Assembly: GCA_020073005.1 (NCBI GenBank)
Contig: JAIQFX010000028.1
Location: 1-51,770, forward strand
Source of the DNA: Terriglobia bacterium
Lineage (GTDB): Bacteria > Acidobacteriota > Vicinamibacteria > Vicinamibacterales > CAVVIG01
DNA: 51,770 nucleotides
Direction of reading: 5' to 3'
Of this stretch, positions 24,046-38,846 are shown one piece after another. Each line of letters begins with the position of its first letter. Within the stretch, counting starts at the first letter, position 1. The notes below the pieces were generated by a model. It did no database searches, was not told the origin of the DNA, and worked only from the letters and a program-made list of their open reading frames with translations. A program made the translations under genes and the position numbers.

Positions 24046-24570
24046 ATGCGTCTGTTCTCGAAAATCTGGAAGACGGGCATCGCCACCGAACTGCTCGAGG
24101 CCGGCGATCCCGAGGCGATCGCGATCGGCCGCGCGCTCGAAGCGCGCATTCAGCGCCTGTTCGGACGGGCGCTCGCCATTCGCATGGTCGACGCGGGCTC
24201 CTGCAACGGCTGCGAGCTCGAGATCACCGGCCTGACGAACCCGATTTACGACATGGAGCGGTTCGGGATGCACTTCGTGGCGTCGCCGCGTCACGCCGAT
24301 CTGCTGCTCGTGACCGGGCCCGTCACGCGGAACATGGAAATCCCGCTGCGCCGGACCTACGAGGCCGCGCCGTCGCCGAAGTTCGTCGTCGCGGTCGGTG
24401 ATTGCGCGAAGACCTGCGGCGTGTTCAAGGACAGCTACGCCGTCATCGGCGCGGTCGATCAGGTCATTCCCGTGGACATTCACGTCACCGGCTGTCCGCC
24501 GGAGCCGACCGATATCCTGCGCGGCATCCTCGAAGGACTGAATCGCTTTCCGGACCGGGCGAGGCGGTGA
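24046..24570 (+). CDS. Complex 1 small subunit (HyfI/NuoB-like, [4Fe-4S])
   Basis: 174 aa. Electron-transfer subunit of a group 4 hydrogenase-related complex. Ligands for the proximal [4Fe-4S] cluster are all present: C53 and C56 (AGSCNGCELE), C120 (GDCAKTCG) and C150 (TGCPPEP). Unlike its paralogue in complex 2 it has no ferredoxin extension. It should sit on the cytoplasmic face, next to the large subunit. It starts right after the ArsR stop and overlaps the next ATG, so it is translationally coupled at both ends. Confidence 0.92.
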   Translation: MRLFSKIWKTGIATELLEAGDPEAIAIGRALEARIQRLFGRALAIRMVDAGSCNGCELEITGLTNPIYDMERFGMHFVASPRHADLLLVTGPVTRNMEIPLRRTYEAAPSPKFVVAVGDCAKTCGVFKDSYAVIGAVDQVIPVDIHVTGCPPEPTDILRGILEGLNRFPDRARR

Positions 24571-26606
24571 TGCCGTCCGGCAACCTCGGCCTCGTCGTGA
24601 TGGTTCTCGGGTACGGCGCCGGGGCCGGCCTGTCGCTCCTCGCGCCGTCGGATCGCGCGGCTCGTGTTCTGACGGCGATCGGCGCAGCCATCGGCTGCAT
24701 CGGAGGACTGATCGCGGCATCGAGCGTGCTCGTGACGCGCGTGCCCGTGGACGCGACGTTCGGATCGCTCGTGTCCGCCGCCGGCGGCGTCGCGATCCAT
24801 CTCGATCCGCTCGGTGCGTTCTTCCTCCTGCTCGTCGCCCTCGTCGGTCTCCCCGCGGCCGTGTACGGCGTGACCTACACCTCGGAGTACGAAGGCCGCC
24901 ATTCGCTTCGCCTCTTCGGGCTGATGTTCAACGGCTTTCTGCTCGGAATGAGCCTCGTGCCGTGCGCCGCCAACATCTTCACGTTCCTGTTCGCATGGGA
25001 ACTGATGGCGATCACGTCGTACTTCCTCGTCATGACCGAGAGCCAGTACGCCGAGACGCGGTACGCCGGGCTCTGGTACGCGGTCATGACGCACTTCGGT
25101 TTTCTTGTCCTCCTGCCGATGTTCCTGATCATGGCGCCGGGCTCCGGCGCGACGGCGTTTGCGGATCTGCGGACGCACGCGGCGCTGATGTCCGGCTCGG
25201 CGAAGAGCGTCGTGTTTCTTCTCGCGATGGTCGCGTTTGGATCGAAGGCCGGCCTCGTGCCGCTGCACGTGTGGCTTCCGCGCGCGCACCCAGCCGCGCC
25301 CTCGCACGTCTCGGCGCTGATGTCGGGCGTGATGATCAAGCTCGGCGTCTACGGCGTGCTGCGGGTCGTGGTCGATTTCCTCGGCGCCGGCCCCGCGTGG
25401 TGGGGCGGACTGGTGCTCGCGGCCGGATCGATCTCGGCGCTCAGCGGCGTGCTGTACGCGCTCACGGAAAACGATCTGAAGCGGCTGCTCGCGTACTCGT
25501 CGGTCGAAAACGTCGGCGTCATCTTTCTCGGCATCGGCGCCGGGCTCGTGCTGCAAAGCTACGGCCTGCACACGCTCGCGCTCGTCGGCTTCGGCGCGGC
25601 CCTGCTGCACACGCTGAACCACGCCTTCTTCAAGGCGCTGCTGTTCCTCGCGACGGGCAACGTCCTGCACGAAGCGCACACGCGCAACATGGAACGGATG
25701 GGCGGCCTGATCAAGGGCATGCCGCAGACCGCGGCGCTGTTCCTGATCGGATCGGCGGCCGCGGCCGCGCTGCCGCCGCTCAACGGCTTCGCGTCGGAGT
25801 GGATGGTGTTCCAGGCGCTGCTCTCCGGCGTGCAGATCCCGCAGCCTGATGTCGCCATTGGCGCGCCGCTCGCGATCGGCGTCCTCGCGCTGACGAGCGG
25901 ACTCGCGGCGGCGTGTTTCGTCAAGGCGTTCGGCATCAGTTTTCTGGCGATGCCGCGATCGGAGGAAGCGGCTCGCGCGCGCGAGTCCCACTGGTCGTCG
26001 CGCGCCGTGATGGGCGTGCTCGCGGCCGGATGCGTGGGTCTCGGTCTCGCGGCGCCGCGCATCTTCGACGGCCTGTTCCGGATCGCCGGCAGCCTGTTCG
26101 CGGCGGGGTCGAGCGCATCGCCGCCCGCGGTCGGACGCCTGTGGCTCGCGGCGCCGAACGGCGTCGCTCAGGTGTCGCCGCTGCTGATCGCCGTGGCGGC
26201 GGCGCTGGCGATCGGCGTGCCGGTCGCGCTCCTGCGCTGGCGCGGTCTCCAGTGGCGGCGCGCGGACACGTGGGGCTGCGGTCGAATCCAGCAGACCGCG
26301 CGCATGGAGTACACCTCGTCGGCGTTCGCCGAACCGCTGCGCCGCGTGTTCTCGGAACTGTATCGCCCGACCGAGGATCTCACCATTAACGTGCATCCCG
26401 ACTCGCGGTATTTCATCCGGTCGATCACGTACACCAGCGCCGTCGTGCCGTGGATCGAGCGCGCGTTCTACGATCCCGTCGCGCGTGGAATGCGCGCCTG
26501 CGCGACGCAGGTCCGCCGGCTGCAGGGCGGTTCCGTCCATCTCTATCTGCTGTACCTCTCCGGTGCGCTGATGGCCGCGCTCGTCGCGGCGTGGTGGTTC
26601 AGATGA
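24570..26606 (+). CDS. Complex 1 antiporter-like membrane subunit (HyfB-like)
   Basis: 678 aa, many hydrophobic helices; related to NuoL/MrpA-type subunits that move protons or sodium. The key residues are kept: E144 in FLFAWELMAITSY, K226 in FGSKAGLVPLHVWLPRAHP, and K355 in HTLNHAFFKALLF. The C-terminal part contains a cytoplasmic-looking WGCGRIQQTARMEYTSSAFA block as in HyfB/HycC. The ATG overlaps the stop of the small subunit, and the TGA overlaps the next ATG. The C-terminal helix may dock on the HyfC-like subunit. It is paralogous to the gene at 31314. Confidence 0.92.
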   Translation: MPSGNLGLVVMVLGYGAGAGLSLLAPSDRAARVLTAIGAAIGCIGGLIAASSVLVTRVPVDATFGSLVSAAGGVAIHLDPLGAFFLLLVALVGLPAAVYGVTYTSEYEGRHSLRLFGLMFNGFLLGMSLVPCAANIFTFLFAWELMAITSYFLVMTESQYAETRYAGLWYAVMTHFGFLVLLPMFLIMAPGSGATAFADLRTHAALMSGSAKSVVFLLAMVAFGSKAGLVPLHVWLPRAHPAAPSHVSALMSGVMIKLGVYGVLRVVVDFLGAGPAWWGGLVLAAGSISALSGVLYALTENDLKRLLAYSSVENVGVIFLGIGAGLVLQSYGLHTLALVGFGAALLHTLNHAFFKALLFLATGNVLHEAHTRNMERMGGLIKGMPQTAALFLIGSAAAAALPPLNGFASEWMVFQALLSGVQIPQPDVAIGAPLAIGVLALTSGLAAACFVKAFGISFLAMPRSEEAARARESHWSSRAVMGVLAAGCVGLGLAAPRIFDGLFRIAGSLFAAGSSASPPAVGRLWLAAPNGVAQVSPLLIAVAAALAIGVPVALLRWRGLQWRRADTWGCGRIQQTARMEYTSSAFAEPLRRVFSELYRPTEDLTINVHPDSRYFIRSITYTSAVVPWIERAFYDPVARGMRACATQVRRLQGGSVHLYLLYLSGALMAALVAAWWFR

Positions 26607-27544
26607 TCAGGTACGTGGCGGTCCTGCTGCAGACGCTCGTGGCGATGGCGCTCGCGCCGGGTCTCGTCGGCTTCATCCGCTGGCTGAAAGCGCGGCTGCA
26701 GGGACGACGAGGGGCGGCGCCGTGGCAGCCGTACTTCGAGCTGCGCAAGCTCTTCGGCAAGGAAGCGGTCATCTCGCACACCGCGTCGTGGATCTTCACC
26801 GCGACGCCGTTCGTGCTCTTCGGCACGAGCGTGCTCGTGGCGTCGGTCGTGCCGCTGATCATCGCACCGGCAGGACGATTCCTCATCGGCGATCTCTTCG
26901 CCACCGTGTACCTGCTGCTGCTCGGCACGTTCTTCCTCGCGCTCGCCGGACTCGACACGGGCTCGCCGTTCGGCGGCATGGGCGCGAGCCGCGAAATGAC
27001 CGTCGTCGCGCTGACCGAGCCGACCGTCGCGCTGTCGATCGTCGCGCTCGCGCTGAACGCGGGGTCGACGAGCTTCTCCCAGATCGTCTCGCACACGCTC
27101 GCGCAGCCGAGCGCGGCGCTTGGGCCCGGGCACCTGCTGGCGTTCGCCGCGCTGTTCATCGTGACGCTCGCCGAAACCGGCCGGCTGCCCGTGGACAACC
27201 CGTCCACGCACCTCGAGCTGACGATGATTCACGAGGCGATGATCCTCGAGTACTCGGGTCCGTACCTCGCGCTGATCGAATGGGGCGCGGCGCTGAAGCT
27301 GCTCGTGTTCCTCGCGCTGGCCGCGAATCTCTTCATGCCGTGGGGCATTGCGCTCTGGCTGTCGCCTGCGGCCATTGCGATCGGCCTGCTGAGTTTCGTC
27401 GCGAAGCTCGGCGTGCTCGCGGTCGCGATCGCGGTGCTCGAGACCCGCGTCGCGAAGCTGCGCCTGTTCAGGGTTCCGGAGCTGTTGAGCGCGTCGTTCG
27501 TGCTCGCGCTCCTCGCGGTCATGTCGACGTTCCTGGTGAGGTAG
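26603..27544 (+). CDS. Complex 1 membrane anchor subunit (HyfC/HycD/NuoH-like)
   Basis: 313 aa, about eight membrane helices. The NuoH-type signature is clear: RLQGRRGAAPWQPYFELRKL near residue 40, FGGMGASREMTVVALTEP, and ETGRLPVDNPSTHLELTMIH with the acidic residues that link the iron-sulfur arm to the pump. This subunit anchors the small and large subunits. The ATG overlaps the HyfB-like stop (ATGA). It is close to the complex 2 paralogue at 33395, which supports duplication. Confidence 0.93.
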   Translation: MIRYVAVLLQTLVAMALAPGLVGFIRWLKARLQGRRGAAPWQPYFELRKLFGKEAVISHTASWIFTATPFVLFGTSVLVASVVPLIIAPAGRFLIGDLFATVYLLLLGTFFLALAGLDTGSPFGGMGASREMTVVALTEPTVALSIVALALNAGSTSFSQIVSHTLAQPSAALGPGHLLAFAALFIVTLAETGRLPVDNPSTHLELTMIHEAMILEYSGPYLALIEWGAALKLLVFLALAANLFMPWGIALWLSPAAIAIGLLSFVAKLGVLAVAIAVLETRVAKLRLFRVPELLSASFVLALLAVMSTFLVR

Positions 27545-27547
27545 CCG

Positions 27548-28207
27548 TTGATAGCCGACCCGCTCTCGCAACTCGTGATGCTCGGCAGCAGCGGCATGCT
27601 GCTGACCGCGCTCATCGTGCTCTGGCGCAAGGGCATTCCCGCGTACGTCACCGCGTACCGCTGGCAGTCGTGGCTGCTGGCCGCCATCACGGCGACGGTG
27701 GGCTACTACGGCCACGACCCGCAGCTGTACTGGGTGGCGGCCGTGCTGCTCGCGCTCAAAGGCATCGCGATCCCGGCGCTGCTGGCGACGATGCAGCGGC
27801 GGTTCGGCGCCGAGCGCGAAGCCACGCCGTACGTGAACACGGAAACCTCGCTGGCGATCGCCGGCGCCCTCGTGCTGTTCGCGTACGTGATCGCCAGGCC
27901 GTGGATGACGATCACGACTCTGCCGACCAGGCAAGGTCTGCCGCTGGCGCTCGCCTTGCTGTTCGTCAGTCTGCTGATCGTCGTGAGCCGGAAGAAGGCG
28001 ATGACGCAGGTGATCGGCTTCCTGATGCTCGAGAACGCGATCGCATTGCTCGCCGCGGTCGGCACGTACGGCGTGCCGCTCCTCGTCGAGTTCGGCGTCT
28101 TCCTCGACGCGCTGATGGGATTCCTGGTGATGCAGATCTTCGTGTACCACATTCACGAGACCTTCGACACGATCGACGTCGAGGAGCTGACGCGGTTGCG
28201 GCATTGA
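27548..28207 (+). CDS. Complex 1 membrane subunit (hydrogenase-4 component E-like)
   Basis: 219 aa, about seven helices. It matches HyfE, which is absent from hydrogenase-3 and corresponds to a NuoK-like part. Visible blocks are LLAMTMQR-like RRFGAEREATPYVNTE after the second helix pair, KKAMTQVIGFLMLENAIALL, and the end MQIFVYHIHETFDTIDVEEL. The start is a TTG three bases after the previous stop; no better start is in frame. Confidence 0.88.
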   Translation: MIADPLSQLVMLGSSGMLLTALIVLWRKGIPAYVTAYRWQSWLLAAITATVGYYGHDPQLYWVAAVLLALKGIAIPALLATMQRRFGAEREATPYVNTETSLAIAGALVLFAYVIARPWMTITTLPTRQGLPLALALLFVSLLIVVSRKKAMTQVIGFLMLENAIALLAAVGTYGVPLLVEFGVFLDALMGFLVMQIFVYHIHETFDTIDVEELTRLRH

Positions 28208-28217: not shown

Positions 28218-29681
28218 GTGACCACCAGCCTTTTCTTCCTGCTGATACCGCCGGCGATCGCCGCCGTTCTGGCGATCCTCGTGCGGCCTTACACGCGTCT
28301 GGTCGGATGGGTGAGCGTGGTCTGCGCGGCGATCTCCTTCGCCGCCAGCGTTGCGCTGGGCGCGGCGGTCGTCAATGCCGGCGTGCCGGATGATCTCGTG
28401 GCCTTGTCCGCGCTCTGGCGCGTCGACGCGTTGTCGGCGCTCCTCGCCGTGTGCATCGCGTTCGTGACGCTTCTTGCGTCGGCGCTCGGCCCTGGACTCG
28501 ACGCCGCCGGTGAGGCTCCGGCGCAGAGCCGCCAGTTTCGGATCTTCATGAATGCGTTCGCGTTCACGATGCTCGTCGCGGTGACGATACAGAACGTGGC
28601 GCTCATGTGGGTCGCGATCGAGGCGACGACGATCACGTCGGCGATGGTGATTCCGCTGACTCGCACGAAAGCGTCGGTCGAGGCGTCGTGGAAGTACATC
28701 TTGATCTGTTCGGTCGGCATCGCGCTGGCGTTCGCGGGCACCGTGCTCGCGTACTTCGATTTCGTCGCGACGGCGGGCGAGGTCCCGGGCGCGCTGAACT
28801 GGACCGTGCTCCGCGAATCGGCGCGGTTGCTGCATCCGCAGCTCCTGCAGACGGCGTTCGCGTTCATCCTGATCGGGTACGGCACGAAGGCCGGGCTCGC
28901 GCCGATGCACACCTGGCTGCCCGACGCGCACTCCGAGGCGCCGTCGCCGATCTCCGCGATGATGTCGGGCGTCCTGCTCGCCGTCGCGCTGTACGCGATT
29001 GCGCGCTGGAAGGCCGTCGTCGACGCGGCGGTCAATCCCTGGTTCACCAATAGTCTGCTTCTGGGATTCGGGCTGCTCTCGGTGACGATCGGCGCGTTCA
29101 GCCTCGTCATTCAGCGCCACTACAAACGCATGCTCGCGTACTCGAGCGTGGAGCACATGGGGCTGGTCGCCATCGGCCTCGCGCTCGGTCCGCTCGGAAC
29201 GTTCGCGGCGCTGCTGCACGTCGTCAATCACGCCGTCGCCAAGTCGATGAGCTTTCTGCTGGCGGGGCGCATTCTGCATCGCTACGACACGACGGAGATC
29301 GGCAGGGTCACCGGCCTGCTGCGCGTCATGCCGTGGACGGGATCGCTGTTCGCCGTCGGCATCCTGGCGCTCGTCGGCCTGCCGCCGTTCGGACTCTTCG
29401 TGTCTGAATTCCTCTTGATTCGCGCCGCCATTCTCGCGGGCCGGTTCTGGGTGGCGGGCGTGGTGCTGGTCTTGTTGCTGACCGTCTTCGCGTCCTTGAT
29501 CACGCACTTGAACCGGATGCTGTACGGCGAGATGCCGTCAGGCGTCGAAATCGGCGAAACGCGCAGCTGGCCCGTCGTCGCGCTTGCGCTGTCGGTCGGC
29601 CTGCTGATCGTGCTCGGCGTGACGCTGCCGCAGCCGATCTCGATGCTGATCTCGCAGTCGGTGCGCGGAGTCATCCGATGA
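28218..29681 (+). CDS. Complex 1 antiporter-like membrane subunit (HyfF-like)
   Basis: 487 aa. Second pump-type subunit of complex 1, related to NuoN/NuoM and HyfF. The residues expected for ion transfer are E135 (WVAIEATTITSAM), K224 (YGTKAGLAPMHTWLPDAHSE) and the later Lys in LHVVNHAVAKSMSFLL. The start is GTG at 28218. Its last four bases overlap the ATG of the large subunit. With the HyfB-like subunit it gives complex 1 two pump modules. Confidence 0.92.
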   Translation: MTTSLFFLLIPPAIAAVLAILVRPYTRLVGWVSVVCAAISFAASVALGAAVVNAGVPDDLVALSALWRVDALSALLAVCIAFVTLLASALGPGLDAAGEAPAQSRQFRIFMNAFAFTMLVAVTIQNVALMWVAIEATTITSAMVIPLTRTKASVEASWKYILICSVGIALAFAGTVLAYFDFVATAGEVPGALNWTVLRESARLLHPQLLQTAFAFILIGYGTKAGLAPMHTWLPDAHSEAPSPISAMMSGVLLAVALYAIARWKAVVDAAVNPWFTNSLLLGFGLLSVTIGAFSLVIQRHYKRMLAYSSVEHMGLVAIGLALGPLGTFAALLHVVNHAVAKSMSFLLAGRILHRYDTTEIGRVTGLLRVMPWTGSLFAVGILALVGLPPFGLFVSEFLLIRAAILAGRFWVAGVVLVLLLTVFASLITHLNRMLYGEMPSGVEIGETRSWPVVALALSVGLLIVLGVTLPQPISMLISQSVRGVIR

Positions 29682-31255
29682 CGATGACATTCGACGCCAT
29701 GCGGCGCACGCTGAGCGACGGCCGGGTGCCGGTGAGCGACCTCGTCTTGCCGCGGCCAAACGAGGTGCATTGCCGTGTCGCGGCCGCGGACCTCAAGGAT
29801 CTGAGCGATTGCGTGTGTCGCGACCTCGGCGCGGAACTCGTCTTCATGGGCGCCGACGATCGCCGCGCGGAGGCAGGCGCGTTCTTCGTTCACTACCTGT
29901 TCGCGCACCGGGCGCAGAACTGGTTTCTTCATGCGTCGGCGCGCGTCGACGCCTCACGGCCGGAAGTGCCCTCGCTGGCCGCGTTCCACTATCCCGCCTC
30001 ACGCTTCGAGCGCGAGATCAGAGATATGTTCGGCATCAACGTGACGGGCCATCCGGACCCGCGCCCGCTCGTCAAGCACGCCTTCTGGCCGGAGGATTAC
30101 TTCCCGCTGCGCAAGAACGCGGGCAGCCCCGGCTTCGCCGACGATGGGCGGGCGTTTCCGTTCACGGAAGTGGGCGGAGAAGGCGTCTACGAAATTCCGG
30201 TCGGTCCGGTCCACGCGGGCGTGATCGAGCCTGGACATTTCCGCTTCAGCGTGATGGGCGAGACCATCATCGACATGAAGTCTCGGCTCTACTTCACGCA
30301 CAAGGGTACCGAGAAGCTGTTCGAAGGGCGCGACCCGGCGGATGGCGTCGAGCTCGCCGAACGCGTGTCGGGCGACACGACGGTTGGACACGCGCTGGCG
30401 TACTGCCAGGCGGTCGAAGCCGCGGCGCGCGTCGACGTTCCGCAGAGGGCGGCGTACCTGCGCGTCATTCTTCTCGAGCTCGAGCGTCTGTACAATCACG
30501 TCGCGGACGTCGGCGCGATCGCCAACGACACGGGGTTCGCCGTCGCGCACGCGCACTGTTACCGGATTCGCGAGCAACTTCTCCGCGTGAACGGACAGCT
30601 CACGGGCTCGCGGCTGCTCCGTGGCGTGCTCTGTCCGGGCGGTCTCACGCGCGATCTCGACGTGCCGCGCGATCTCTCCGCGCGCATCGAAGCGCTGGTC
30701 GCCGATTTCGACGAGATCGTCGAGATCTGCCTGGGGAACACGCTCGTGCTCGATCGGCTCGAAGGCACGGGCGTTCTGAAGCCCGAGCTGGCCCGCGATC
30801 ACGGCGTCCTCGGGTATGTCGCGCGCGCGTCGGGGATCGATCTCGACGCGCGGCGCGATCATCCGTTCGCGGCGTACGGCCGGCTGAGATTCGCCGTGCC
30901 GGTCTACGAGAACGGCGACGTGAAGGATCGGCTCCGCGTGCGAACCGACGAAGTGCACGAGGCCGCTGACCTCATCGAGCAGGCGACCGCGAATCTGGCG
31001 ACCGGCCCGGTTCGCGCGAGTCCCGGACGCATCGATGCGTTCGCGCCCGCGTTCGGGATCGTCGAAGGGTGGCGCGGCCGCATCATCCACTGGCTCATGA
31101 CGCGAGAGGATGGCCGGCTGCATCGCGTCAAGATCGTCGATCCGTCGTTCTTCAACTGGTCCGCGCTTTCGCTGGCGCTCGTGGGTAACATCGTTCCCGA
31201 CTTTCCGTTGTGCAACAAGTCGTTCAATCAGTCGTACTCGGGGAATGATCTGTAG
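29678..31255 (+). CDS. Complex 1 large subunit (HyfG/NuoCD-like) lacking all NiFe ligands
   Basis: 525 aa. Residues 1-150 are NuoC-like (SRFEREIRDMFGINVTGHPD); the rest is NuoD/hydrogenase large-subunit-like (IPVGPVHAGVIEPGHFRF, LELERLYNHVADVGAIANDT). In true hydrogenases two CxxC motifs bind NiFe. Here the first is SGDT (Ser231, Thr234) and the second reads SYSGNDL (Ser519, Gly522), so all four Cys are lost, although the surrounding motifs are kept. Hence it is not a hydrogenase but an Ehr-like protein. It ends at the position where mature hydrogenase subunits end. What it reacts with is unknown; quinone or another redox partner is possible by analogy with complex I. Confidence 0.92.
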   Translation: MTMTFDAMRRTLSDGRVPVSDLVLPRPNEVHCRVAAADLKDLSDCVCRDLGAELVFMGADDRRAEAGAFFVHYLFAHRAQNWFLHASARVDASRPEVPSLAAFHYPASRFEREIRDMFGINVTGHPDPRPLVKHAFWPEDYFPLRKNAGSPGFADDGRAFPFTEVGGEGVYEIPVGPVHAGVIEPGHFRFSVMGETIIDMKSRLYFTHKGTEKLFEGRDPADGVELAERVSGDTTVGHALAYCQAVEAAARVDVPQRAAYLRVILLELERLYNHVADVGAIANDTGFAVAHAHCYRIREQLLRVNGQLTGSRLLRGVLCPGGLTRDLDVPRDLSARIEALVADFDEIVEICLGNTLVLDRLEGTGVLKPELARDHGVLGYVARASGIDLDARRDHPFAAYGRLRFAVPVYENGDVKDRLRVRTDEVHEAADLIEQATANLATGPVRASPGRIDAFAPAFGIVEGWRGRIIHWLMTREDGRLHRVKIVDPSFFNWSALSLALVGNIVPDFPLCNKSFNQSYSGNDL

Positions 31256-31306: not shown

Positions 31307-31313
31307 GGGCACC

Positions 31314-33395
31314 GTGAACATCGAATCGGGCCCAGGCGTGATGGCGGCGTGCTATGGCGCAGGGGCGCTCTTGTCCTTGCTGCTGGCGCGGTGGTCGGGC
31401 CGCCTCGCGCTCGGCCTGAGTCATCTTGCCGCGGCAGCCGGGGCGGCCGCGGGCCTCGCCCTTTCCCTTGGCCTGCTTCTCGGCGAACCCGGCCGCACGC
31501 TGATCCAGCCGCTCCCAAACATTTTCCCGTTCGCGAAACTCTCGCTCTCGATCGATGGGCTGTCGGCGTACTTTCTGCTCGTCGTTTCCGTCGTCGCCGT
31601 CGCCGCGGCGATCTACGGTCCGGCGTACCTCCGGGCGCACTCGCCCGATGCCGGATCCCCGCGGCAGGCGGCGCAAGGGTTCGCGCTGAACGTGTTCCTG
31701 GGCTGCATGGCGTTCCTCTGCTGCGCCGGCGACGCGTTGACGTTCCTCTTCTGCTGGGAAGGCATGACGCTCGCCAGCTACGTCCTCGTCGTCTCCGACG
31801 ATCGGGATGGCGAGAACGCGCGAGCGGGCCTCCTTTACATGGTGATGGCCCATGGAGGGACGGCCCTGCTGCTCGTGGCGTTTCTTGCGCTCACCGAGCG
31901 GGCCGGGGCGTTCGACTTCGCGGCCCTTCGCGCGGCCGCGACCGGCCTCAACGGTCCGACGCGGACGGCACTCTTTTTTCTGGCGCTCGGCGGCTTCGCC
32001 ACCAAGGCCGGCGTCGTTCCGCTCCACGTGTGGCTTCCGCGCGCGCATCCTGCGGCCCCGAGTCACGTGTCGGCCCTGATGTCGGGCGTGATGCTCAAGG
32101 TCGCGATCTACGGGCTCCTGCGTTTCACGTTCGACCTTCTGGCGCCGGTCGCCGGACCGCTTCCGTTCTCGTGGGGATGGACCGTGCTCTTCGTGGGCAC
32201 GACATCGGCGGTGCTTGGCGTGCTCTACGCGCTCCAGCAGCACGACCTCAAGCGTCTGCTCGCGTTCCACAGCGTCGAGAACATCGGGATCATCCTCATC
32301 GGCGTGGGGCTCGCGATGATTCTGTGGCGCCAGAGTACGGGCGGCGCCCTCGCAACCGTCGCGCTCACGGCGGCGCTTCTTCACACCGTCAACCACGCCG
32401 CCTTCAAAGGCCTGCTCTTCCTCGGGGCGGGCAGCGTGCTCTCCCGCACGCACCTCCGCAACATCGAGGAGCTCGGCGGGCTCGCCCGGCGCATGCCGTG
32501 GACGGCGGGGCTGTTCCTGCTCGGCGCCATCGCCATCTCGGCGCTCCCGCCGCTCAACGGATTCGTCAGCGAGTGGCTCACTTTCCAGGCGCTTCTCGGA
32601 GGCGCGACCCGCTTTCACGGGCCGGCCGGTCTCGTCATTGTTTTTTCCGCGGCGATGCTCGCGCTGACCGGAGGCCTTGCCGCGGCCTGTTTCGCGAAGG
32701 CGTTCGGCGTCACCTTTCTTGGCCGCCCGCGAACATCGCAGGCTGAGCACGCCACCGAGGCGCCGCCGTCGATGATCGCCGGCATGCTGTGGCTCGGCGC
32801 GCTGTGCGTCGCGCTCGGCGTCGCGCCGGGCTATGCGATGCGGCTGCTCGACGCGCCCACGGCGGCGTTGCTCCACGGCCCCGGCGCGAGCGCCGTCGTG
32901 ACGGCCCGGGGACCGCTCGTGCTGTCGACGGCGCTGACGCCGTCAGGCGCGAACGGAACGGCCATTTCGATGACGATGGTCGCCGCGCTCCTCATCGCGC
33001 TCAGCGCGATGGCGCTGGTGCTGCGCCGCGGCGTCCGGCGTGCGCCGCCGCGCGTCGCTCCGACGTGGACGTGCGGGATGACACCCACGGCGCGGTTCGA
33101 CTACACGGCGACCGCGTTCGCCAAGCCGCTCCGGCTCGTGTTCGCGGCGCTCTATCATCCGCGCCGCGAGGTGACCCGCGAGACGGCCGGGACGCCGTAC
33201 GTCGTCCGGCGGATCCACTACGCCGGCGAGATTGTTGACCTCGCGGAGACGCACATTTACCACCGGGTCGAGCGCGAGATCTCGGCGCTCTCGCAGCTCA
33301 TTCGCGCCCGCAGCACCGGCCGCATCTACGGGTACATCGGGTTCGTGCTCGCCGCCCTCTTCGTGGCGCTGCTGCTGCTCGGGGTGGCCTACTGA
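31314..33395 (+). CDS. hyfB: Complex 2 antiporter-like membrane subunit (HyfB-like)
   Basis: 693 aa, the second HyfB-type gene. Pump residues are kept: E149 in FLFCWEGMTLASY, K231 in GGFATKAGVVPLHVWLPRAH, and a Lys in HTVNHAAFKGLLF. The C-terminus has the WTCGMTPTARFDYTATAFA block shared with the complex 1 copy, then a final helix. It starts at GTG with AAAGGG upstream, after a tandem repeat. It differs from the complex 1 copy throughout, so the duplication is old. The stop overlaps the next ATG (TGATG). Confidence 0.92.
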   Translation: MNIESGPGVMAACYGAGALLSLLLARWSGRLALGLSHLAAAAGAAAGLALSLGLLLGEPGRTLIQPLPNIFPFAKLSLSIDGLSAYFLLVVSVVAVAAAIYGPAYLRAHSPDAGSPRQAAQGFALNVFLGCMAFLCCAGDALTFLFCWEGMTLASYVLVVSDDRDGENARAGLLYMVMAHGGTALLLVAFLALTERAGAFDFAALRAAATGLNGPTRTALFFLALGGFATKAGVVPLHVWLPRAHPAAPSHVSALMSGVMLKVAIYGLLRFTFDLLAPVAGPLPFSWGWTVLFVGTTSAVLGVLYALQQHDLKRLLAFHSVENIGIILIGVGLAMILWRQSTGGALATVALTAALLHTVNHAAFKGLLFLGAGSVLSRTHLRNIEELGGLARRMPWTAGLFLLGAIAISALPPLNGFVSEWLTFQALLGGATRFHGPAGLVIVFSAAMLALTGGLAAACFAKAFGVTFLGRPRTSQAEHATEAPPSMIAGMLWLGALCVALGVAPGYAMRLLDAPTAALLHGPGASAVVTARGPLVLSTALTPSGANGTAISMTMVAALLIALSAMALVLRRGVRRAPPRVAPTWTCGMTPTARFDYTATAFAKPLRLVFAALYHPRREVTRETAGTPYVVRRIHYAGEIVDLAETHIYHRVEREISALSQLIRARSTGRIYGYIGFVLAALFVALLLLGVAY

Positions 33396-34333
33396 TGATC
33401 GGCGACAGGCCGCTCGCCCTCGTGCTCGTCGAGATGATCCTGCTCGTGCTGGTGGGGCCGCTCGTGACCGGCACCATCCAGAAGATGAAGGCGCGGCTCC
33501 AGTGCCGCCGGGGCGCCGCGGTGCTTCAGCCGTACCGCGATCTCGCCAAGCTGTTCCGCAAAGGCACGGTGCAGGCCGACACGACATCGGGCTTCTTCTG
33601 GTCGATCCCGATCCTCGTGCTCGCCGCTACCGTGGCCGCGGGCGCGCTCGTGCCGGTCATTCGGGCGGGGCCGCCGGCCTTTCCGTTGGGCGACGCGGTG
33701 ATGCTCCTCGGGCTCCTCGCGCTGGCCCGCTTCCTCACGGCGGTCGGCGCGCTCGACGCCGGCGGCGCTTTCGGCGGCATGGGCGCTTCGCGCGAGATGA
33801 CGATCGCGCCGCTCGTCGAGCCGGTCCTGATGATGGTCGTGTTCTCGACCGCGGTGGCCGCCGGGACGACGGAGCTTGGCGCGCTGGCCGCGCACCGCGG
33901 GACGTCGTGGTTCCTGGCCTGGCGCGCGGCGGACTTCCTCGGCTTCGCGGCCATGCTCGTGCTGCTCCCGGCGGAGACCGGCCGGATCCCCGTCGACAAT
34001 CCGGACACGCATCTCGAGCTCACGATGCTGCACGAAGGAATGCTGCTCGAGCACTCCGGGCCGGGACTCGGCTGCATGGCGCTCGCCTCGCACACACGGC
34101 AGATCGTGACGCTCAGCCTGGTGTCGGCGCTCTTCTTTCCGATCGGACCCGCCGGCGGCGCGTCGGGCCTCGTCCTCGGCGCCGGCGCGTTCGCGGTGAA
34201 GATCCTCGTGCTCGCGACGTTCCTCGCGCTGGTCGAGTCGTCGTACGCCAAGCTCCGGCTGTTCCGCGTGCCGCAGTACCTCGGCGTCGGTTTCGTGTGC
34301 GCCCTGACGGCGCTCGCGCTGAGGATCCTGTGA
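33395..34333 (+). CDS. hyfC: Complex 2 membrane anchor subunit (HyfC/HycD/NuoH-like)
   Basis: 312 aa, about eight helices. It carries the same signature as the complex 1 copy: QCRRGAAVLQPYRDLAKLFR, GGMGASREMTIAPLVEP, and ETGRIPVDNPDTHLELTMLH. It anchors the peripheral arm of the active-site-bearing complex. The stop overlaps the following GTG, showing coupled translation. Confidence 0.93.
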   Translation: MIGDRPLALVLVEMILLVLVGPLVTGTIQKMKARLQCRRGAAVLQPYRDLAKLFRKGTVQADTTSGFFWSIPILVLAATVAAGALVPVIRAGPPAFPLGDAVMLLGLLALARFLTAVGALDAGGAFGGMGASREMTIAPLVEPVLMMVVFSTAVAAGTTELGALAAHRGTSWFLAWRAADFLGFAAMLVLLPAETGRIPVDNPDTHLELTMLHEGMLLEHSGPGLGCMALASHTRQIVTLSLVSALFFPIGPAGGASGLVLGAGAFAVKILVLATFLALVESSYAKLRLFRVPQYLGVGFVCALTALALRIL

Positions 34334-34995
34334 GCCCGCTGAGTCCTGATGCGGTCCACACCGTCATCGACGACCTCGGCGCGCTGCTGCTGTTCACGAT
34401 GATCCTCATCGTCGCGGCAGGGCAGATCTATCGCGCCATCTATTCCGTGGCCGCGCAGTCGCTCCTCATCTCCATCGCCGCCGCCGTCCTCGCGACGTCG
34501 ACCGGGAATCCGGATCTCTGGGTGATTGCCGGCATCACGCTGGCGGTCAAGGCCATCCTGCTGCCGTGGGTGCTGCACCGGGTCGTCCAGCGCATGAACG
34601 TGCGGCGCGAGGTGGAGCCGGTGATCCCCATCGCCGCGACGCTCGCCCTCGCGGTCGCGATCGTCGTGGTGTCGTTTCAGTTGAGCGCGTCGCTCGGCCC
34701 CGTCCGTCAGGCGATCACCGGCAACGCGCTCCCGGTCGGCATCGCCCTCACGCTGACGGGCGTGCTGGTCATGGCGACCCGCAAGACGGCGCTGACCCAG
34801 ATGGTGGGCCTCTTCGCCTCGGAGAACGGCATCTTCTTCACGGCGATGGCCGTCACGCAGGGAATGCCGCTCATCATCGAGATCGGCGTGATCCTCGACG
34901 TGATCCTCGCCGCGCTCGTGATGACGATCATGGTGCTCCGCGTCCGCTCGACGGTCGACGCCGACATCGCCGACCTGGATCGGCTGAGGGGATGA
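34330..34995 (+). CDS. hyfE: Complex 2 membrane subunit (hydrogenase-4 component E)
   Basis: 221 aa, about seven helices; HyfE-like. Visible blocks are RRVVQRMNVRREVEPVIP-type positives after helix three (seen as HRVVQRMNVRREVEP), ATRKTALTQMVGLFASENGI, and the end VLRVRSTVDADIADLDRL. The GTG start overlaps the hyfC stop. Similar length and topology to the complex 1 copy, though sequence identity is modest. Confidence 0.88.
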   Translation: MSPLSPDAVHTVIDDLGALLLFTMILIVAAGQIYRAIYSVAAQSLLISIAAAVLATSTGNPDLWVIAGITLAVKAILLPWVLHRVVQRMNVRREVEPVIPIAATLALAVAIVVVSFQLSASLGPVRQAITGNALPVGIALTLTGVLVMATRKTALTQMVGLFASENGIFFTAMAVTQGMPLIIEIGVILDVILAALVMTIMVLRVRSTVDADIADLDRLRG

Positions 34996-34998: not shown

Positions 34999-36471
34999 GT
35001 GGCTGAGACGCTCCTCTGGGTCCTCCCGGTCGTCCCGACCGTCACCGCGCTGCTCATGCTCACGACGCGCGATCGCCGCGTGCTGTCGGCGATTGACGTC
35101 GCCGGATCGTCGGTGCTTCTCGCGCTCGCGCTGGTCCTCGCGCGCGACGTGGCCGCCGGCGGCCCGCGAGCGCTCGGCGTCTTTCGCGCGGACGCCCTCG
35201 GAGTCGTCTTTCTCCTCCTTGTCGTCGTCCTCACGCTGGCCGTCTCCATCTACACGGTGGGGTGGCTCAGGCAGGCGGTGGCCGTCGGCAACATGAAGGC
35301 CGAGTACTTGCGGTCGTACTTCGCGCTCGTGCACGCCTTCGTGGCGACGATGGTCGTGACGGTCCTCGCCGACAACCTCGGCGTCCTCTGGATCGCGATG
35401 GAAGGGACGACGATCACGTCGGCCGTTCTCATCGGCTACCACGGCCACCATCACGGACTCGAGGCGGCGTGGAAGTACATCATCGTGACGACCATCGGCA
35501 TTTCGTTCGGCCTCTTCGGCACCGTGCTCGTCTACGCCGCGTACGCGGCCGCCGCCGGCGTTCACGGCGGCGCGGGATCGCTGAGCTGGTCGGCGATCAT
35601 GCAGGTCGCGCCCACGCTCGACCCGGGGATCATTCGCATCGGCTTCATCTTCGTCATGGTCGGGTACGGCACCAAGGCGGGTCTCGCGCCCATGCACCTC
35701 TGGCTGCCGGACGCGCACAGCCAGGCGCCCACGCCCGTCTCGGCGCTGCTCTCGGGCGTGCTCATCAAGTGCGCGCTCCTCGGCATCATCCGGTTTCAGA
35801 CGATCGCGGCGGCCGCGTGCGGTCCGGCGTTCCCGGCGCGCGTGCTGATCGTCTTCGGCCTGACGTCGGTCATCGTGGCCACGCCGTTCATCCTGGCGCA
35901 GCACGACATCAAGCGCCTCCTCGGCTACCACAGCGTCGAGCACGTCGGAATCGTCGCGCTCGGTCTCGGCTTCGGCGGCCCCATCGGCACCTACGGCGCG
36001 CTGCTGCACGTGGTGAACCACGGCATCACGAAGGCGCTCGCGTTCTTCGCCGCCGGCAAGGCCATCGCCCGCTACGACTCGCGCGATATGCGTGTGATCC
36101 GGGGCCTCCTCGCCGTCGCGCCGATCGGCGCGACGTTCCTCATGCTCGCGGCGCTGTCGCTCGCCGGCGTGCCGCCGTTCTCGATCTTCGTGAGCGAGCT
36201 GATGGTGCTGCGCGCCGGCATCGGCCACGGTCACTGGGTGGCGATCGCGATCTTTCTCGCGATGGTCGTCGTCATCTTCGCCGGCCTCCTCCATCACGCC
36301 GGCGCCATGGTCTTCGGCGAGCCGCCGGCGACGGCAAGCCGGGAGCCGGAAGCGTGGTCCCCGCTGATCGGCATGCTGCTGCTCGCGGCGATCATGATCC
36401 TGCTCGGACTCACCATTCCCGCGAGCCTCGACCGGCTGCTCCAGCGCGCAACGGAGGTCGTCGTTGGCTGA
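34999..36471 (+). CDS. hyfF: Complex 2 antiporter-like membrane subunit (HyfF-like)
   Basis: 490 aa. Pump subunit with E135 in WIAMEGTTITSAV, K226 in YGTKAGLAPMHLWLPDAHSQ, and a Lys in LHVVNHGITKALAFF. The key Glu has exactly the same number as in the complex 1 copy. It starts at GTG three bases after hyfE and overlaps the TTG start of the large subunit by eight bases. Complex 2 therefore also has two pump modules. Confidence 0.92.
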   Translation: MAETLLWVLPVVPTVTALLMLTTRDRRVLSAIDVAGSSVLLALALVLARDVAAGGPRALGVFRADALGVVFLLLVVVLTLAVSIYTVGWLRQAVAVGNMKAEYLRSYFALVHAFVATMVVTVLADNLGVLWIAMEGTTITSAVLIGYHGHHHGLEAAWKYIIVTTIGISFGLFGTVLVYAAYAAAAGVHGGAGSLSWSAIMQVAPTLDPGIIRIGFIFVMVGYGTKAGLAPMHLWLPDAHSQAPTPVSALLSGVLIKCALLGIIRFQTIAAAACGPAFPARVLIVFGLTSVIVATPFILAQHDIKRLLGYHSVEHVGIVALGLGFGGPIGTYGALLHVVNHGITKALAFFAAGKAIARYDSRDMRVIRGLLAVAPIGATFLMLAALSLAGVPPFSIFVSELMVLRAGIGHGHWVAIAIFLAMVVVIFAGLLHHAGAMVFGEPPATASREPEAWSPLIGMLLLAAIMILLGLTIPASLDRLLQRATEVVVG

Positions 36472-38002
36472 CCGTACCGTGCGCCTCGTTGACGCGGCCG
36501 ATCTCCCTGCGGCGGCCGCCGAGCTGACGGGACCGCACGCGATGGCGCTCGCCACGGTGGTGGCGACGGACGAGACGGCGACGCCGGACGGCGATTTCAA
36601 GGTGCGCTATGTCTTCGAACCCACCGCTCCAGGCGGTCCCGATCGTTTCGTGACGCTTGTGGTCTCCGTCGATGCCGCGCGCCTGGAAGTGCCGTCGCTG
36701 ACGACGATCGTCCCGGCGGCCAACTGGCACGAGCGCGAGATGCGGGATCTCTTCGGCATCGTCCCGGCCGGGCATCCCGATCCCCGCCCGCTCGTGGTCC
36801 ACGACGGGTGGCCGCAGGGCGTCTTCCCGCTGCGCAAGGCGTTCGATGGATCGCGGCGCGTCGCCGTCGAGCCCGCCGCCGAGTTCCCGCACCTCGTCGC
36901 GGAAGGGGAGGGCGTCTTCGAGATCCCGGTCGGTCCGATCCACGCGGGCATCATCGAGCCGGGGCACTTCCGTTTTTCGTCTGTCGGCGAGACCGTGCTC
37001 AATCTCGACGCGCGACTGTTCTACACGCATCGCGGGCTGGAAAAGCGGATGGAGGGACTCTCGCCGCTCGACGCCTTCTACGTCGCCGAACGCATCTGCG
37101 GCGTGTGTTCGGTCGCGCATGGCCTGGGCTACTGCGAAGCCCTCGAGCAGATTGCCGGAGTCGATGCGCCGCCGCGGGCCCGGCTGATCCGGACCATCGC
37201 GCTCGAACTGGAGCGGCTCTACAACCACGTCGGCGACATCGGCAACGTCTGCGCCGGCGCGGCGTTCCACTACGGCACGATGACCGGCAGTCGCTTGAAA
37301 GAGACGCTCCAGCAAGTGAACGAGCGGCTCGCCGGCAATCGGTTCCTTCGAGGCCTCGTGATCCCGGGCGGCGCGCGCCTCGATCTCTCGAGCGACCTGC
37401 TCCGCGTGCTCGCCGATACGCTTCGGGACACGCTCGCGGGGCTCGACACCTTGATGGAACGTATCGAAGCCAATCCGTCGGTCGTCGATCGGCTCGATGA
37501 CACCGGCGTCCTCGACCATCAGGCCGCGCTCGACCTCGCCGTCGCCGGCGTCGCGGCCCGCGCGAGCGGCGTGGATCGCGACGCGCGTCGCGATCATCCG
37601 CACGGCGCGTTCGGGGGCGCCGATCCGCCCGACCTGCGCGTGGTGACGGCGTCCGAAGGGGACGTCATGGCCCGCGTGACCGTGCGCGCCCTCGAGGCCC
37701 GCGAGTCGATCCGGCTCATCGGCGAGCTCGTCCGGCGGCTCGAGCCCGGGCCGCTGCAGATCGCCCTCGCCGATCCGCTGCCGGGCGGACGGATCGGAAT
37801 CTCGGCGATCGAGTCGGCGCGCGGCGAGGCGGTCCACTGGCTTCGCACCGACGCGTCCGGACGCGTGGAGCGATACCACCTCCGGTCGCCGAGCTATCAC
37901 AACTGGCCCGCCGTGGCTCTGGCCGGCCAGACGGCCATCGTTCCGGATTTCCCGCTCGTCAACAAGAGCTTCGAGCTCTGCTATTCGTGCACGGACCGCT
38001 GA
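36464..38002 (+). CDS. hyfG: Complex 2 large subunit: group 4 [NiFe] hydrogenase catalytic subunit
   Basis: 512 aa, NuoC-like domain then hydrogenase domain. Both NiFe motifs are intact: C212 and C215 in ERICGVCSVAHG, C506 and C509 in CYSCTDR. So it should bind the NiFe(CN)2CO centre and produce or oxidise H2, in the hydrogenase-4/FHL group. The protein stops right after CYSCTDR, where E. coli HycE is cut by its protease, so no C-terminal peptide needs removal. It starts at TTG with GGAGG six bases upstream. No formate dehydrogenase or Hyp gene is in the window; maturation proteins must be elsewhere. Confidence 0.93.
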   Translation: MADRTVRLVDAADLPAAAAELTGPHAMALATVVATDETATPDGDFKVRYVFEPTAPGGPDRFVTLVVSVDAARLEVPSLTTIVPAANWHEREMRDLFGIVPAGHPDPRPLVVHDGWPQGVFPLRKAFDGSRRVAVEPAAEFPHLVAEGEGVFEIPVGPIHAGIIEPGHFRFSSVGETVLNLDARLFYTHRGLEKRMEGLSPLDAFYVAERICGVCSVAHGLGYCEALEQIAGVDAPPRARLIRTIALELERLYNHVGDIGNVCAGAAFHYGTMTGSRLKETLQQVNERLAGNRFLRGLVIPGGARLDLSSDLLRVLADTLRDTLAGLDTLMERIEANPSVVDRLDDTGVLDHQAALDLAVAGVAARASGVDRDARRDHPHGAFGGADPPDLRVVTASEGDVMARVTVRALEARESIRLIGELVRRLEPGPLQIALADPLPGGRIGISAIESARGEAVHWLRTDASGRVERYHLRSPSYHNWPAVALAGQTAIVPDFPLVNKSFELCYSCTDR

Positions 38003-38003
38003 C

Positions 38004-38846
38004 ATGCTGCGAATTCTGATCAACGCGCTCCGCACGGGGGTCGTCACGACGCGCTACCCCGCGGAGCCGGGCGTCCCGCCGGATCGCTTTCGCGGCGCGC
38101 CCGTGCTCCGCAGCGGCAGCCGCCTGCCGCCTCCGGACGTGTGTCCCTCGGGCGCGCTCACGGAACGTTTCGATGCGGGCGGTCGCCACGTCGCGCTCGA
38201 TCTCGCGCGATGCGTCTTCTGCGGCCGCTGCGCCGAGGATCCGTGGGAAGGCGCCGTGACCATGGGACGGGACTTCGAGCTCGCCGCACGCAGCCGCGAC
38301 GACCTGCGGATCGAGGTCGTCGCCGACGAGACAATTCACGTCAGCTCGACGGCGGAGCCGGCGCGCGCCTTGTCCGCCGTAGCCTTGGCGGAGGCGGACC
38401 GCGCCTCGTCGGAAATCCGCCGCGTGCTCGGCCGATCGCTGCAGCTGCGTCACCTCGACGCGGGCTCCTGCAACGCCTGCGACTGGGAGCTCGCGGCGCT
38501 GCTGAATCCGGTGTACGACGTGCGTCGCCTCGGCATCGACTTCGTCGCATCGCCGAGACACGCGGATGGCGTCGCGGTCACCGGTTCGGTCACGCGCAAC
38601 CTGGAGACCGCCGTCCGTCGCACGGTCGAGGCCGTTCCGGATCCGCGCATCGTGATCGCCGTCGGCGCGTGCGCCGCCTCCGGCGGCATCGTCGGCGAGG
38701 GATACGCGAGCGCCGGCGGCGTCGATCGGATCCTGCCGGTCGACGTCTACATTCCCGGCTGCCCGCCGCGCCCGGAGGCCATCATCTTCGGCATCCTGGT
38801 TGCGCTCGGGCGTCTCGACGCCCGCCGATCGCGTCGCGGGGAGTGA
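38004..38846 (+). CDS. hyfI: Complex 2 small subunit with fused half-ferredoxin (HyfH-HyfI-like)
   Basis: 280 aa. The C-terminal part is HyfI/NuoB-like with all cluster ligands: C156 and C159 (GSCNACDWE), C223 (GACAASGG) and C253 (PGCPPRP). The first about 95 residues are a ferredoxin domain of the HycF/NuoI type with half its ligands: C47 in CPSGAL and C70, C73, C76 in ARCVFCGRCAEDPW. These are exactly the four for one [4Fe-4S] cluster; the four for the other are absent. Such fusion of two normally separate subunits gives a shortened electron wire. One base separates it from the large-subunit stop. It ends the operon. Confidence 0.9.
   Translation: MLRILINALRTGVVTTRYPAEPGVPPDRFRGAPVLRSGSRLPPPDVCPSGALTERFDAGGRHVALDLARCVFCGRCAEDPWEGAVTMGRDFELAARSRDDLRIEVVADETIHVSSTAEPARALSAVALAEADRASSEIRRVLGRSLQLRHLDAGSCNACDWELAALLNPVYDVRRLGIDFVASPRHADGVAVTGSVTRNLETAVRRTVEAVPDPRIVIAVGACAASGGIVGEGYASAGGVDRILPVDVYIPGCPPRPEAIIFGILVALGRLDARRSRRGE

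What the first reader, a model, noticed from the sequence alone, without database searches (positions are those of the whole stretch)
24046..38846. Two hydrogenase-4-like membrane complexes in tandem, one Ehr-like and one with a NiFe site
Twelve genes encode two complete sets of small, B, C, E, F and large subunits. Orders are I-B-C-E-F-G and B-C-E-F-G-I. Complex 1 has lost the NiFe ligands, complex 2 keeps them, and both keep pump residues. Genes overlap almost throughout, so both sets are probably made together. A linked pair could pass electrons between an H2-linked site and a non-hydrogenase site, or form one super-complex with four pump subunits. I know of Ehr complexes and group 4 hydrogenases separately; their fixed pairing is what looks new.
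Basis: partly seen in the sequence, partly recalled or inferred. Interest (0 to 1): 0.92.

Follow-up and report, generated by a model that had tools for sequence, protein, structure and literature searches.

The report
Mobile hydrogenase-like complex beside resident look-alike
Two related membrane energy complexes sit side by side in this bacterium; one is a resident non-hydrogenase, the other a six-gene module found little changed in several bacterial phyla, which keeps its metal-site cysteines even in draft genomes where the genes for building a normal hydrogenase centre were not found.

Summary
In detail: twelve genes, two complete B-C-E-F-G-I sets, at 24046-38846. Set 1 has lost the four NiFe cysteines; set 2 keeps them. 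Fixed adjacency does not hold. In 162 genomes of the order, set 2 occurs in five: tandem with set 1 in two (same genus), on another contig in one, with a different Ehr on another contig in one, alone in one. A third genome of the genus has set 1 in the same place without set 2. Set 1 is an Ehr operon behind an Rv0081-like ArsR gene. Set 2 belongs to a separate clade, 87% identical to a same-family copy and equally to Bradyrhizobium and Solirubrobacteraceae copies, so it moves laterally and landed behind set 1. A looser pairing holds: 21 of 25 set-2 hosts carry a second set, ligand-less in 19; in four hosts it is directly adjacent, in two arrangements. Set 2 may not be an ordinary hydrogenase: HypD and HypF were both missing in 11 of 25 hosts, and the canopy Asp-Pro is Glu-Leu in 23 of 23 readable copies, yet the cysteines persist. 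Best reading: a ferredoxin-fed membrane redox pump with an unusual Cys4 site, working beside Ehr complexes. Function is inferred, not measured.

The parts
23710..24045 (+). ArsR-family regulator directly in front of set 1
   Evidence: Pfam HTH_5 3.5e-11; best PDB match is Rv0081 of M. tuberculosis, 6jmi, E 4.1e-17; relatives stand at set-1-type and two-B-type operons of the order
24046..24570 (+). I1, small subunit, NuoB/HyfI-like, no ferredoxin domain
   Evidence: Oxidored_q6 1.1e-32
24570..26606 (+). B1, antiporter-like subunit (HyfB-like)
   Evidence: Proton_antipo_M 1.5e-54; NCBIfam hydrogenase 4 subunit B 661.9 bits, just under its cut-off of 667
26603..27544 (+). C1, NuoH/HyfC-like membrane subunit
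   Evidence: NADHdh 6.9e-41
27548..28207 (+). E1, HyfE-like membrane subunit
   Evidence: no Pfam match; 33% identical to E2 over 179 aa; same place between C and F in related loci
28218..29681 (+). F1, antiporter-like subunit (HyfF-like)
   Evidence: Proton_antipo_M 3e-47
29678..31255 (+). G1, large subunit of set 1, Ehr type, NiFe ligands lost (S, T, S, G)
   Evidence: Complex1_49kDa 5.3e-42; motifs; tree
31256..31313 (.). junction between the sets, heptamer repeats, no sigma-70 promoter-like or terminator-like site
31314..33395 (+). B2, antiporter-like subunit of set 2
   Evidence: Proton_antipo_M 3.4e-55
33395..34333 (+). C2, NuoH/HyfC-like membrane subunit
   Evidence: NADHdh 1.4e-36
34330..34995 (+). 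E2, HyfE-like membrane subunit (start GTG 34330 proposed)
   Evidence: sequence; no Pfam match for 34345-34992; 33% identical to E1
34999..36471 (+). F2, antiporter-like subunit of set 2
   Evidence: Proton_antipo_M 1.1e-53
36464..38002 (+). G2, large subunit of set 2, four ligand cysteines kept, ends at the Arg after the last motif (no C-terminal extension)
   Evidence: Complex1_49kDa 9.4e-39; motifs
38004..38846 (+). I2, HyfH/NuoI-like ferredoxin domain fused to NuoB-like small subunit
   Evidence: NCBIfam formate hydrogenlyase iron-sulfur subunit 1.1e-15 over residues 1-103, below its cut-off; Oxidored_q6 over 156-264; cysteines

Best explanation
The block is two independent six-gene complexes of the complex I / hydrogenase-4 superfamily put next to each other. 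Set 1 is the resident: an Ehr complex without a NiFe site, behind an Rv0081-like ArsR regulator. Set 2 is a laterally mobile six-gene module, a cysteine-keeping sister lineage of Ehr, inserted directly behind set 1 in the ancestor of this genome and its sister species and probably using set 1's transcript. Inferred working of set 2: electrons from a soluble low-potential carrier (most likely ferredoxin) enter through the ferredoxin domain of I2, pass the NuoB-type cluster to a Cys4 site in G2, and the reaction there drives ion movement through B2 and F2. The Cys4 site is probably not, or not always, a standard Hyp-built NiFe(CN)2CO centre. Set 2 works alongside an Ehr complex of whatever clade the host owns, most likely through a shared electron pool and not a dedicated super-complex. 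Shown: gene content, motifs, separate clades, near-identity across phyla, co-occurrence, absence of HypD and HypF from 11 of 25 host assemblies. Inferred: direction of insertion, electron donor, site chemistry, coupling.
For: Separate clades: 25 set-2 rows (98*) and 49 ligand-less rows (97*). Set 1 in place without set 2 between polA and the DUF1223 gene in same-genus G023. Transfer: concatenated set 2 of the window is as close to Bradyrhizobium (87.7%) and Solirubrobacteraceae (87.1%) as to same-family G001 (87.1%); corrected 4-fold-site distance 0.47 to Solirubrobacteraceae against 0.55 to G059 of the same order; for G000-G059, 4-fold sites agree at 64% in set 2 and 48% in set 1. Pairing: 21 of 25 hosts have a second set against 37 of 157 genomes of the order without set 2. 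Unusual site: HypD and HypF missing in the same 11 of 25 hosts; in 14 of 14 hosts with HypD it lies on another contig than set 2; canopy Asp to Glu 23 of 23, Pro to Leu 23 of 23, Ser to Asn 25 of 25, while the cysteines are 25 of 25 and 23 of 23. Purifying selection where both hosts lack Hyp: median d2/d4 0.126, 21 pairs. ArsR best match Rv0081.
Against: The own genome does have HypD and HypF, near a full-length NiFe large subunit of another type. HypD is commoner in set-2 hosts (14 of 25) than in the rest of the order (42 of 157, p 0.005). Most hosts are MAGs; 5 of the 11 Hyp-less hosts have set 2 on contigs under 15 kb and may be mis-binned. Constraint is a little weaker where both hosts lack Hyp (median 0.126 against 0.095; 0.15-0.21 in the six closest pairs), and in one Hyp-less host, G200 (L128), F2 is split by a frameshift and I2 lies across an N gap with residues missing. 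Four of 25 hosts show no partner. The co-occurrence background comes from one order and a slightly different search, the hosts from many phyla. Neither Acidobacteriota nor family f1 is rejected as a clade in the set-2 tree, so the transfer case rests on distances, not topology. The insertion could instead be a clean loss in G023.
Confidence: 0.55

Rival explanations
1. Set 2 is an ordinary H2-evolving group 4 NiFe hydrogenase, ferredoxin-linked and ion-pumping; the missing Hyp genes are gaps in draft genomes or wrongly binned contigs.
For: All four cysteines, the beta1-beta2 loop Glu, canopy Arg and the proton-path His, Arg and Glu are kept; best PDB match is HycE; 14 of 25 hosts have HypD and HypF; ferredoxin domain in I2; signs of weaker constraint or damage in Hyp-less hosts.
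Against: 11 of 25 hosts lack both markers; at a 10% miss rate per genome the chance of 11 or more is 1.2e-5, at 20% 0.006. Two of them are 97% and 92% complete. Six of the 11 carry set 2 on contigs of 37-242 kb. The canopy Asp, described as strictly conserved (PMC9474812, passage), is Glu in 23 of 23.
Confidence: 0.35
2. The two sets form one super-complex or pass electrons directly between an H2 site and a non-hydrogenase site.
For: Tandem and probably co-transcribed here and in G022; set 2 directly followed by another Ehr set in two betaproteobacterial genomes; partner in 21 of 25 hosts.
Against: Partners come from different Ehr clades, which leaves little room for a co-evolved interface; partner and set-2 identities are uncorrelated across pairs of hosts (Spearman 0.07, p 0.29, 21 hosts); 4 of 25 hosts have no partner; type-1 Ehr is mostly found without set 2.
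Confidence: 0.07
3. The neighbourhood is passive: set 2 is a mobile cargo that landed behind set 1 by chance, and co-occurrence with Ehr only reflects hosts of similar lifestyle.
For: Set 2 spreads widely without a conserved neighbour gene; integrase-like genes lie in the same locus in G110 and in the Bryobacterales locus L127; adjacency is the exception (5 of 25 on one contig).
Against: Direct adjacency exists in two different arrangements with different Ehr clades; 21 of 25 against 37 of 157 (p 9e-9), although the two samples differ in taxonomy.
Confidence: 0.3
4. Set 2 is a local tandem duplicate of set 1.
For: Same six subunits next to each other.
Against: G 45%, B 45%, F 40%, E 33% identical; two separate clades, each with members in other genomes; different gene order and a fused I2.
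Confidence: 0.01

Closest known systems
Ehr complexes (energy-converting hydrogenase-related; hyfBCEFGI-type clusters of comammox Nitrospira, Acidithiobacillus, Cupriavidus, Geobacter)
   Same: Set 1 has the same kind of subunits and has lost the NiFe ligands; passages in PMC10284858, PMC7735108, PMC5596200, PMC2864759, PMC13194489
   Different: Set 2 keeps all four cysteines and forms the sister clade; for the Cupriavidus and N. nitrosa clusters the passages read do not say that the ligands are missing
M. tuberculosis Rv0081-Rv0087 locus
   Same: regulator Rv0081 (best PDB match of the window's ArsR) controls an operon listed as oxidoreductase, oxidoreductase, hycD, hycP, hycQ, hycE (PMC6901956, passages), which fits the order of set 1
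   Different: no second set behind it as far as recalled; whether Rv0087 has lost its ligands was not checked here
E. coli formate hydrogenlyase (Hyc/Hyf), group 4a
   Same: HycE is the best PDB match of both G2 and G1; four cysteines in common with G2
   Different: no formate dehydrogenase or maturation protease recognised among 25 of 27 picked neighbour frames in the window; canopy Asp-Pro replaced by Glu-Leu; no C-terminal extension
Pyrococcus Mbh and Mbs/Mbx
   Same: one NiFe complex and one ligand-changed relative in the same cell (largely recalled; Mbh is a PDB match of G2)
   Different: other subunit composition, archaeal, not a transferred six-gene module (recalled)

Membership tests
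Ehr (set 1) | large subunit of the hydrogenase family without the NiFe cysteines | tested here: met
   S, T, S, G at the four places
Ehr (set 1) | large subunit groups with other ligand-less sequences | tested here: met
   49-row clade, SH-aLRT 97
Group 4 NiFe hydrogenase (set 2) | four cysteine ligands | tested here: met
   window and the readable copies: 25 of 25 for the first pair, 23 of 23 for the second
Group 4 NiFe hydrogenase (set 2) | canopy Asp and Pro of the DPC motif | tested here: not met
   Glu-Leu in 23 of 23 readable set-2 rows; Asp-Pro in 6 of 6 comparison hydrogenases
Group 4 NiFe hydrogenase (set 2) | Hyp maturation genes in every host | tested here: not met
   HypD and HypF in 14 of 25 hosts, both missing in 11; draft genomes. 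The window's own genome has both
Group 4 NiFe hydrogenase (set 2) | groups with HycE and other NiFe sequences rather than with Ehr | tested here: not met
   set 2 lies in the 77-row branch with Ehr, apart from HycE and four NiFe rows; drawn with a midpoint root, long branches flagged
Group 4 NiFe hydrogenase (set 2) | H2 turnover, Ni content | not testable with these tools
   -
Formate hydrogenlyase (Hyc/Hyf) | formate dehydrogenase, HycB-like, HycH and HycI partners next to it | tested here: not met
   none recognised in the window (25 of 27 picked frames outside the sets scanned) nor among recurring neighbours of other set-2 loci (similarity clusters, not a profile search); present beside the Azospirillum FHL
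   tandem in 2 of 5 set-2 genomes of the order
HydDB group 4f or 4g | classifier call | not tested
   HydDB was not available here; passages of its paper read only (PMC5037454)

The most novel reading that the evidence does not exclude
Set 2 is a new type of complex I-superfamily redox pump: its Cys4 site carries a cofactor that does not need the Hyp pathway (for example an iron-sulphur, mononuclear or other metal centre), it is traded between phyla as a six-gene module, and it functions together with Ehr complexes, so that it shows a living step between hydrogenases and Ehr.
Probability: 0.3. Interest if true: 0.85.

Novelty: new variant of a known kind. Interest (0 to 1): 0.58.

Why it matters
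Ehr complexes are widespread and their reaction is described as unknown (passage, PMC10284858). A sister lineage that keeps the cysteines, mostly lives with an Ehr set and in part without HypD and HypF makes the question testable: purify set 2, ask what sits in the Cys4 site and what it turns over, and compare with the neighbouring Ehr. It also warns that four conserved cysteines in a group-4-like subunit, a usual sign by which genomes are called H2-producing, may mislead when the host has no maturation genes.

Tried and rejected
Local duplication: rejected by identity and tree. Fixed adjacency: rejected by relatives. A shared accessory gene that would name the substrate: an all-against-all comparison of neighbouring reading frames found the ArsR gene (set-1 type and two-B type), genus-level synteny, a histidine kinase / response regulator pair in five loci (L061, L063, L081, L083, L125; domains confirmed in L125 and for the regulator of L063), a frame without Pfam match shared by L126, L127, L129 and L143, and an integrase in L061, L127 and L143. 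Two-component genes are too common to build on. Zinc-type dehydrogenases behind the partner set in two betaproteobacterial loci were judged too few. Window neighbours: 25 of 27 picked frames scanned, housekeeping and peptidase-type genes, no formate dehydrogenase, no Hyp. Plasmids: G2 matches 89 records and G1 110, all under 60% identity; five regions were viewed: four stand-alone six-gene clusters whose large subunits end without cysteines and one formate hydrogenlyase; no set 2 among them. A first topology test that rejected Acidobacteriota as a clade was dropped: it included L143, identical to L127 in the large subunit and of the same isolate series by name ('palsa'), probably mis-binned; without L143, L142, L126 and L124 nothing is rejected. 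A first Fisher test used 38 of 157 as background; the right figure is 37 of 157. The 37 include genomes with only other NiFe-type matches, and that search used G2 at 1e-40 while the partner search used G1 at 1e-36; all counted partners have 5.6e-59 or better except G195's at 2.7e-56. A first rate check used stop-to-stop frames and was redone on trimmed codon alignments of 19 rows. Structure prediction was not run, since by its description it returns no coordinates.

Literature: searches, 85 of the held open library showed no title or passage describing a set-2-like module or its pairing with Ehr; of the papers cited I read only passages found by terms. Marreiros 2013 and Coppi 2005 were seen only in reference lists and not looked up.
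Full report
What is there. The window is contig 95 of a 5.86-Mb draft genome. Twelve genes at 24046-38846 form two complete sets. Six of eleven junctions overlap, four are gaps of 1-10 bases, and 58 bases lie between G1 and B2. That gap consists largely of heptamer repeats and has no sigma-70 promoter-like or terminator-like match; in G022 it is 21 bases. One transcript is plausible, not shown. Around the block, 25 of 27 picked reading frames were scanned: polA, a DUF1223 protein, an FAD oxidoreductase, peptidases, aminotransferases and the like.

The two large subunits. Aligned with E. coli HycE, G1 has S, T, S, G and G2 has C, C, C, C at the ligand places. Set 2 also keeps the beta1-beta2 loop Glu, the canopy Arg and the His, Arg and Glu of the proton path. 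It differs at places discussed in the FHL structure paper (PMC9474812, passages): the canopy Asp, called strictly conserved there, is Glu in 23 of 23 readable set-2 rows, the following Pro is Leu in 23 of 23, and the canopy Ser is Asn in 25 of 25. In six comparison hydrogenases these are Asp, Pro and Ser; in 49 Ehr rows the Asp is Asn in 46, with two gaps and one Asp. G2 ends at the Arg after the last motif, as do the other copies readable to the end.

Set 1. An ArsR gene stands directly in front of it. Its best match among solved structures is Rv0081 of M. tuberculosis (E 4e-17), which regulates rv0082-rv0087 (PMC6901956, passages). All seven genes ArsR, I, B, C, E, F, G of this type were found together in 10 of the 40 loci fetched from the order. 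In the G tree the type-1 clade has 20 rows, all from this order among the rows used.

Is the pair fixed? No. In 162 genomes of the order, 42 have a G-like match at E up to 1e-40, and 5 of them have a set-2 G at 84% or more: G000 and G022 in tandem; G059 with set 2 and set 1 on different contigs; G001 with set 2 at a contig end and another Ehr at the start of a second contig; G110 with set 2 alone. A scan of 193 genomes of the class at 1e-122 found the same five. In G023, of the same genus, set 1 sits in the same place between polA and the DUF1223 gene, with an HD-domain gene and no set 2. G022 has set 1, set 2, a shortened relative of the HD gene, DUF1223; the window lacks the HD gene. Insertion of set 2 behind set 1 in the ancestor of G000 and G022 explains this; a clean loss in G023 is not excluded.

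Where set 2 comes from. One scan of a collection with one genome per species returned 36 loci, of which 23 have G2 at 62% or more: Acidobacteriota, Alpha-, Beta- and Gammaproteobacteria, Actinomycetota, Gemmatimonadota, Nitrospirota, Omnitrophota and one assigned to Dormibacterota. The other 13 are at most 33% identical and were left out. Gene order B-C-E-F-G-I with the fused I2 is kept as far as the contigs reach; in L128 F2 is split by a frameshift and I2 lies across an N gap, in L143 G2 is split at an N gap. Concatenated identity to the window: G022 96.4, G001 87.1, G059 87.0, G110 84.9, Bradyrhizobium 87.7, Solirubrobacteraceae 87.1, a Betaproteobacterium 86.4, Gemmatimonadaceae 83.5, Methylococcaceae 81.8, Nitrospirota 78.3, Omnitrophota 62.3. 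In two cross-phylum comparisons 72 and 77% of 4-fold sites agree, where saturation would give 35 and 37%; on trimmed alignments the corrected 4-fold distance of the window is 0.47 to the Solirubrobacteraceae copy and 0.55 to G059 of its own order. PolA of G000 is 70, 66 and 63% identical to that of G001, G110 and G059, and 4-fold sites between G000 and G059 agree at 64% for set 2 but 48% for set 1. Lateral transfer is the simple reading. Topology alone does not prove it: Acidobacteriota and the window's family are not rejected as clades. Several copies lie on short MAG contigs, and L143 (Dormibacterota) is identical in G to L127 and probably mis-binned.

The looser pairing. With these 23 hosts plus G059 and G000, 25 hosts were searched with G1. 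21 have a second set besides set 2 and complex I; G110, G205, G207 and G215 have none. The partner is ligand-less in 19 and keeps four cysteines in the two Solirubrobacteraceae. Partners fall in different Ehr clades. The sets share a contig in 5 of 25: the window and G022 (set 1 first), G197 and G214 (set 2 first, an Ehr set of another clade directly behind), and G202 (about 13 kb between the G genes). G001's two contigs match the two ends of the G197 tandem at 80-84% DNA identity across phyla (G proteins 86 and 82%), so a linked pair may have moved together; the join in G001 is not seen. Against 37 of 157 genomes of the order without set 2, 21 of 25 gives p 9e-9 and the 19 ligand-less partners p 6e-7. 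The samples differ in taxonomy, the hits are not independent, and thresholds differed slightly.

Is set 2 a hydrogenase? HypD is found in 14 of 25 hosts and HypF in the same 14; in all 14 HypD lies on another contig than set 2. In the window's genome they lie near a full-length NiFe large subunit of another type. Around the Hyp genes of eleven further hosts, a large subunit with classical motifs was seen in four (G195, G199, G205, G210); several contigs were too short to tell. The 11 hosts without either gene are G194, G197, G198, G200, G202, G110, G208, G001, G212, G214 and G215. Two have known completeness, 92 (G110) and 97% (G001); six carry set 2 on contigs of 37 kb or more. If only the 15 hosts with set 2 on contigs over 30 kb are counted, 6 lack Hyp and 13 have a partner (counted). 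Set 2 is under purifying selection where both hosts lack Hyp (median second-position to 4-fold ratio 0.126, 21 pairs) as where both have it (0.095, 66 pairs). The ratio is 0.15-0.21 in the six closest Hyp-less pairs, so some weakening there is possible, and G200, with its split F2, is one of these hosts.

How it most likely works. I2 offers a ferredoxin-type entry, the NuoB-like domain a proximal cluster, G2 a Cys4 site, B2 and F2 antiporter-like pumps with their key motifs. From the superfamily I infer ferredoxin-driven (or reversible) turnover at G2 coupled to ion movement. What G2 turns over is open: protons/H2 if a NiFe centre is built, something else in hosts without Hyp. The varied Ehr partners speak for a shared electron pool more than for a physical super-complex.

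Known and new. Ehr complexes without NiFe ligands are known, with unknown or only suspected function (passages: PMC10284858, PMC6349859, PMC7735108, PMC13194489). Group 4 hydrogenases are known. I found no account of this cysteine-keeping, fused-I, cross-phylum module or of its company with Ehr in the searches, which cover only an open library. I rate it a new variant of a known kind.

Noticed in passing
L067, L070, L071, L074, L078, L094, L206, L207: A further ligand-less Ehr type (motif ESISGD or ESVSGD) with a fused I2-like subunit and in most of these loci two B-type frames, in several behind the same ArsR family.
   Followed up: partly
L203 and L204 (Solirubrobacteraceae): These set-2 hosts carry a second, only 40% identical set whose large subunit also has four cysteines and the same Glu-Leu in place of Asp-Pro; a second cysteine-keeping lineage near Ehr.
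   Followed up: partly
L061:17665-19158 (G110), also L127: Tyrosine integrase near set 2 in G110 and a related frame in the Bryobacterales locus, a possible vehicle of transfer.
   Followed up: partly
L125:2013-4279, also L061, L063, L081, L083: A histidine kinase / OmpR-type response regulator pair directly in front of set 2 in a Betaproteobacterium; related frames lie near sets in four other loci.
   Followed up: partly
window 31255-31307, 39762-39827, 7107-7158: Heptamer tandem repeats of different sequence, between genes or at their starts; those at 39762-39827 lie inside the first codons of the 39707 reading frame, whose true start may be later.
   Followed up: no
window 1917-1949, 6513-6557, 17942-17984: An 11-base unit (GGGGTCGGACC or its complement) in tandem at three distant places.
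   Followed up: no
L066:2349-3683 and the matching DNA in L060: HD-domain phosphohydrolase gene between the hydrogenase-like sets and the DUF1223 gene in G023, a shortened relative in G022, absent from the window.
   Followed up: partly
L143 and L127: A contig assigned to Dormibacterota has a large subunit identical to that of a Bryobacterales MAG with the same isolate series name; probable binning error.
   Followed up: partly
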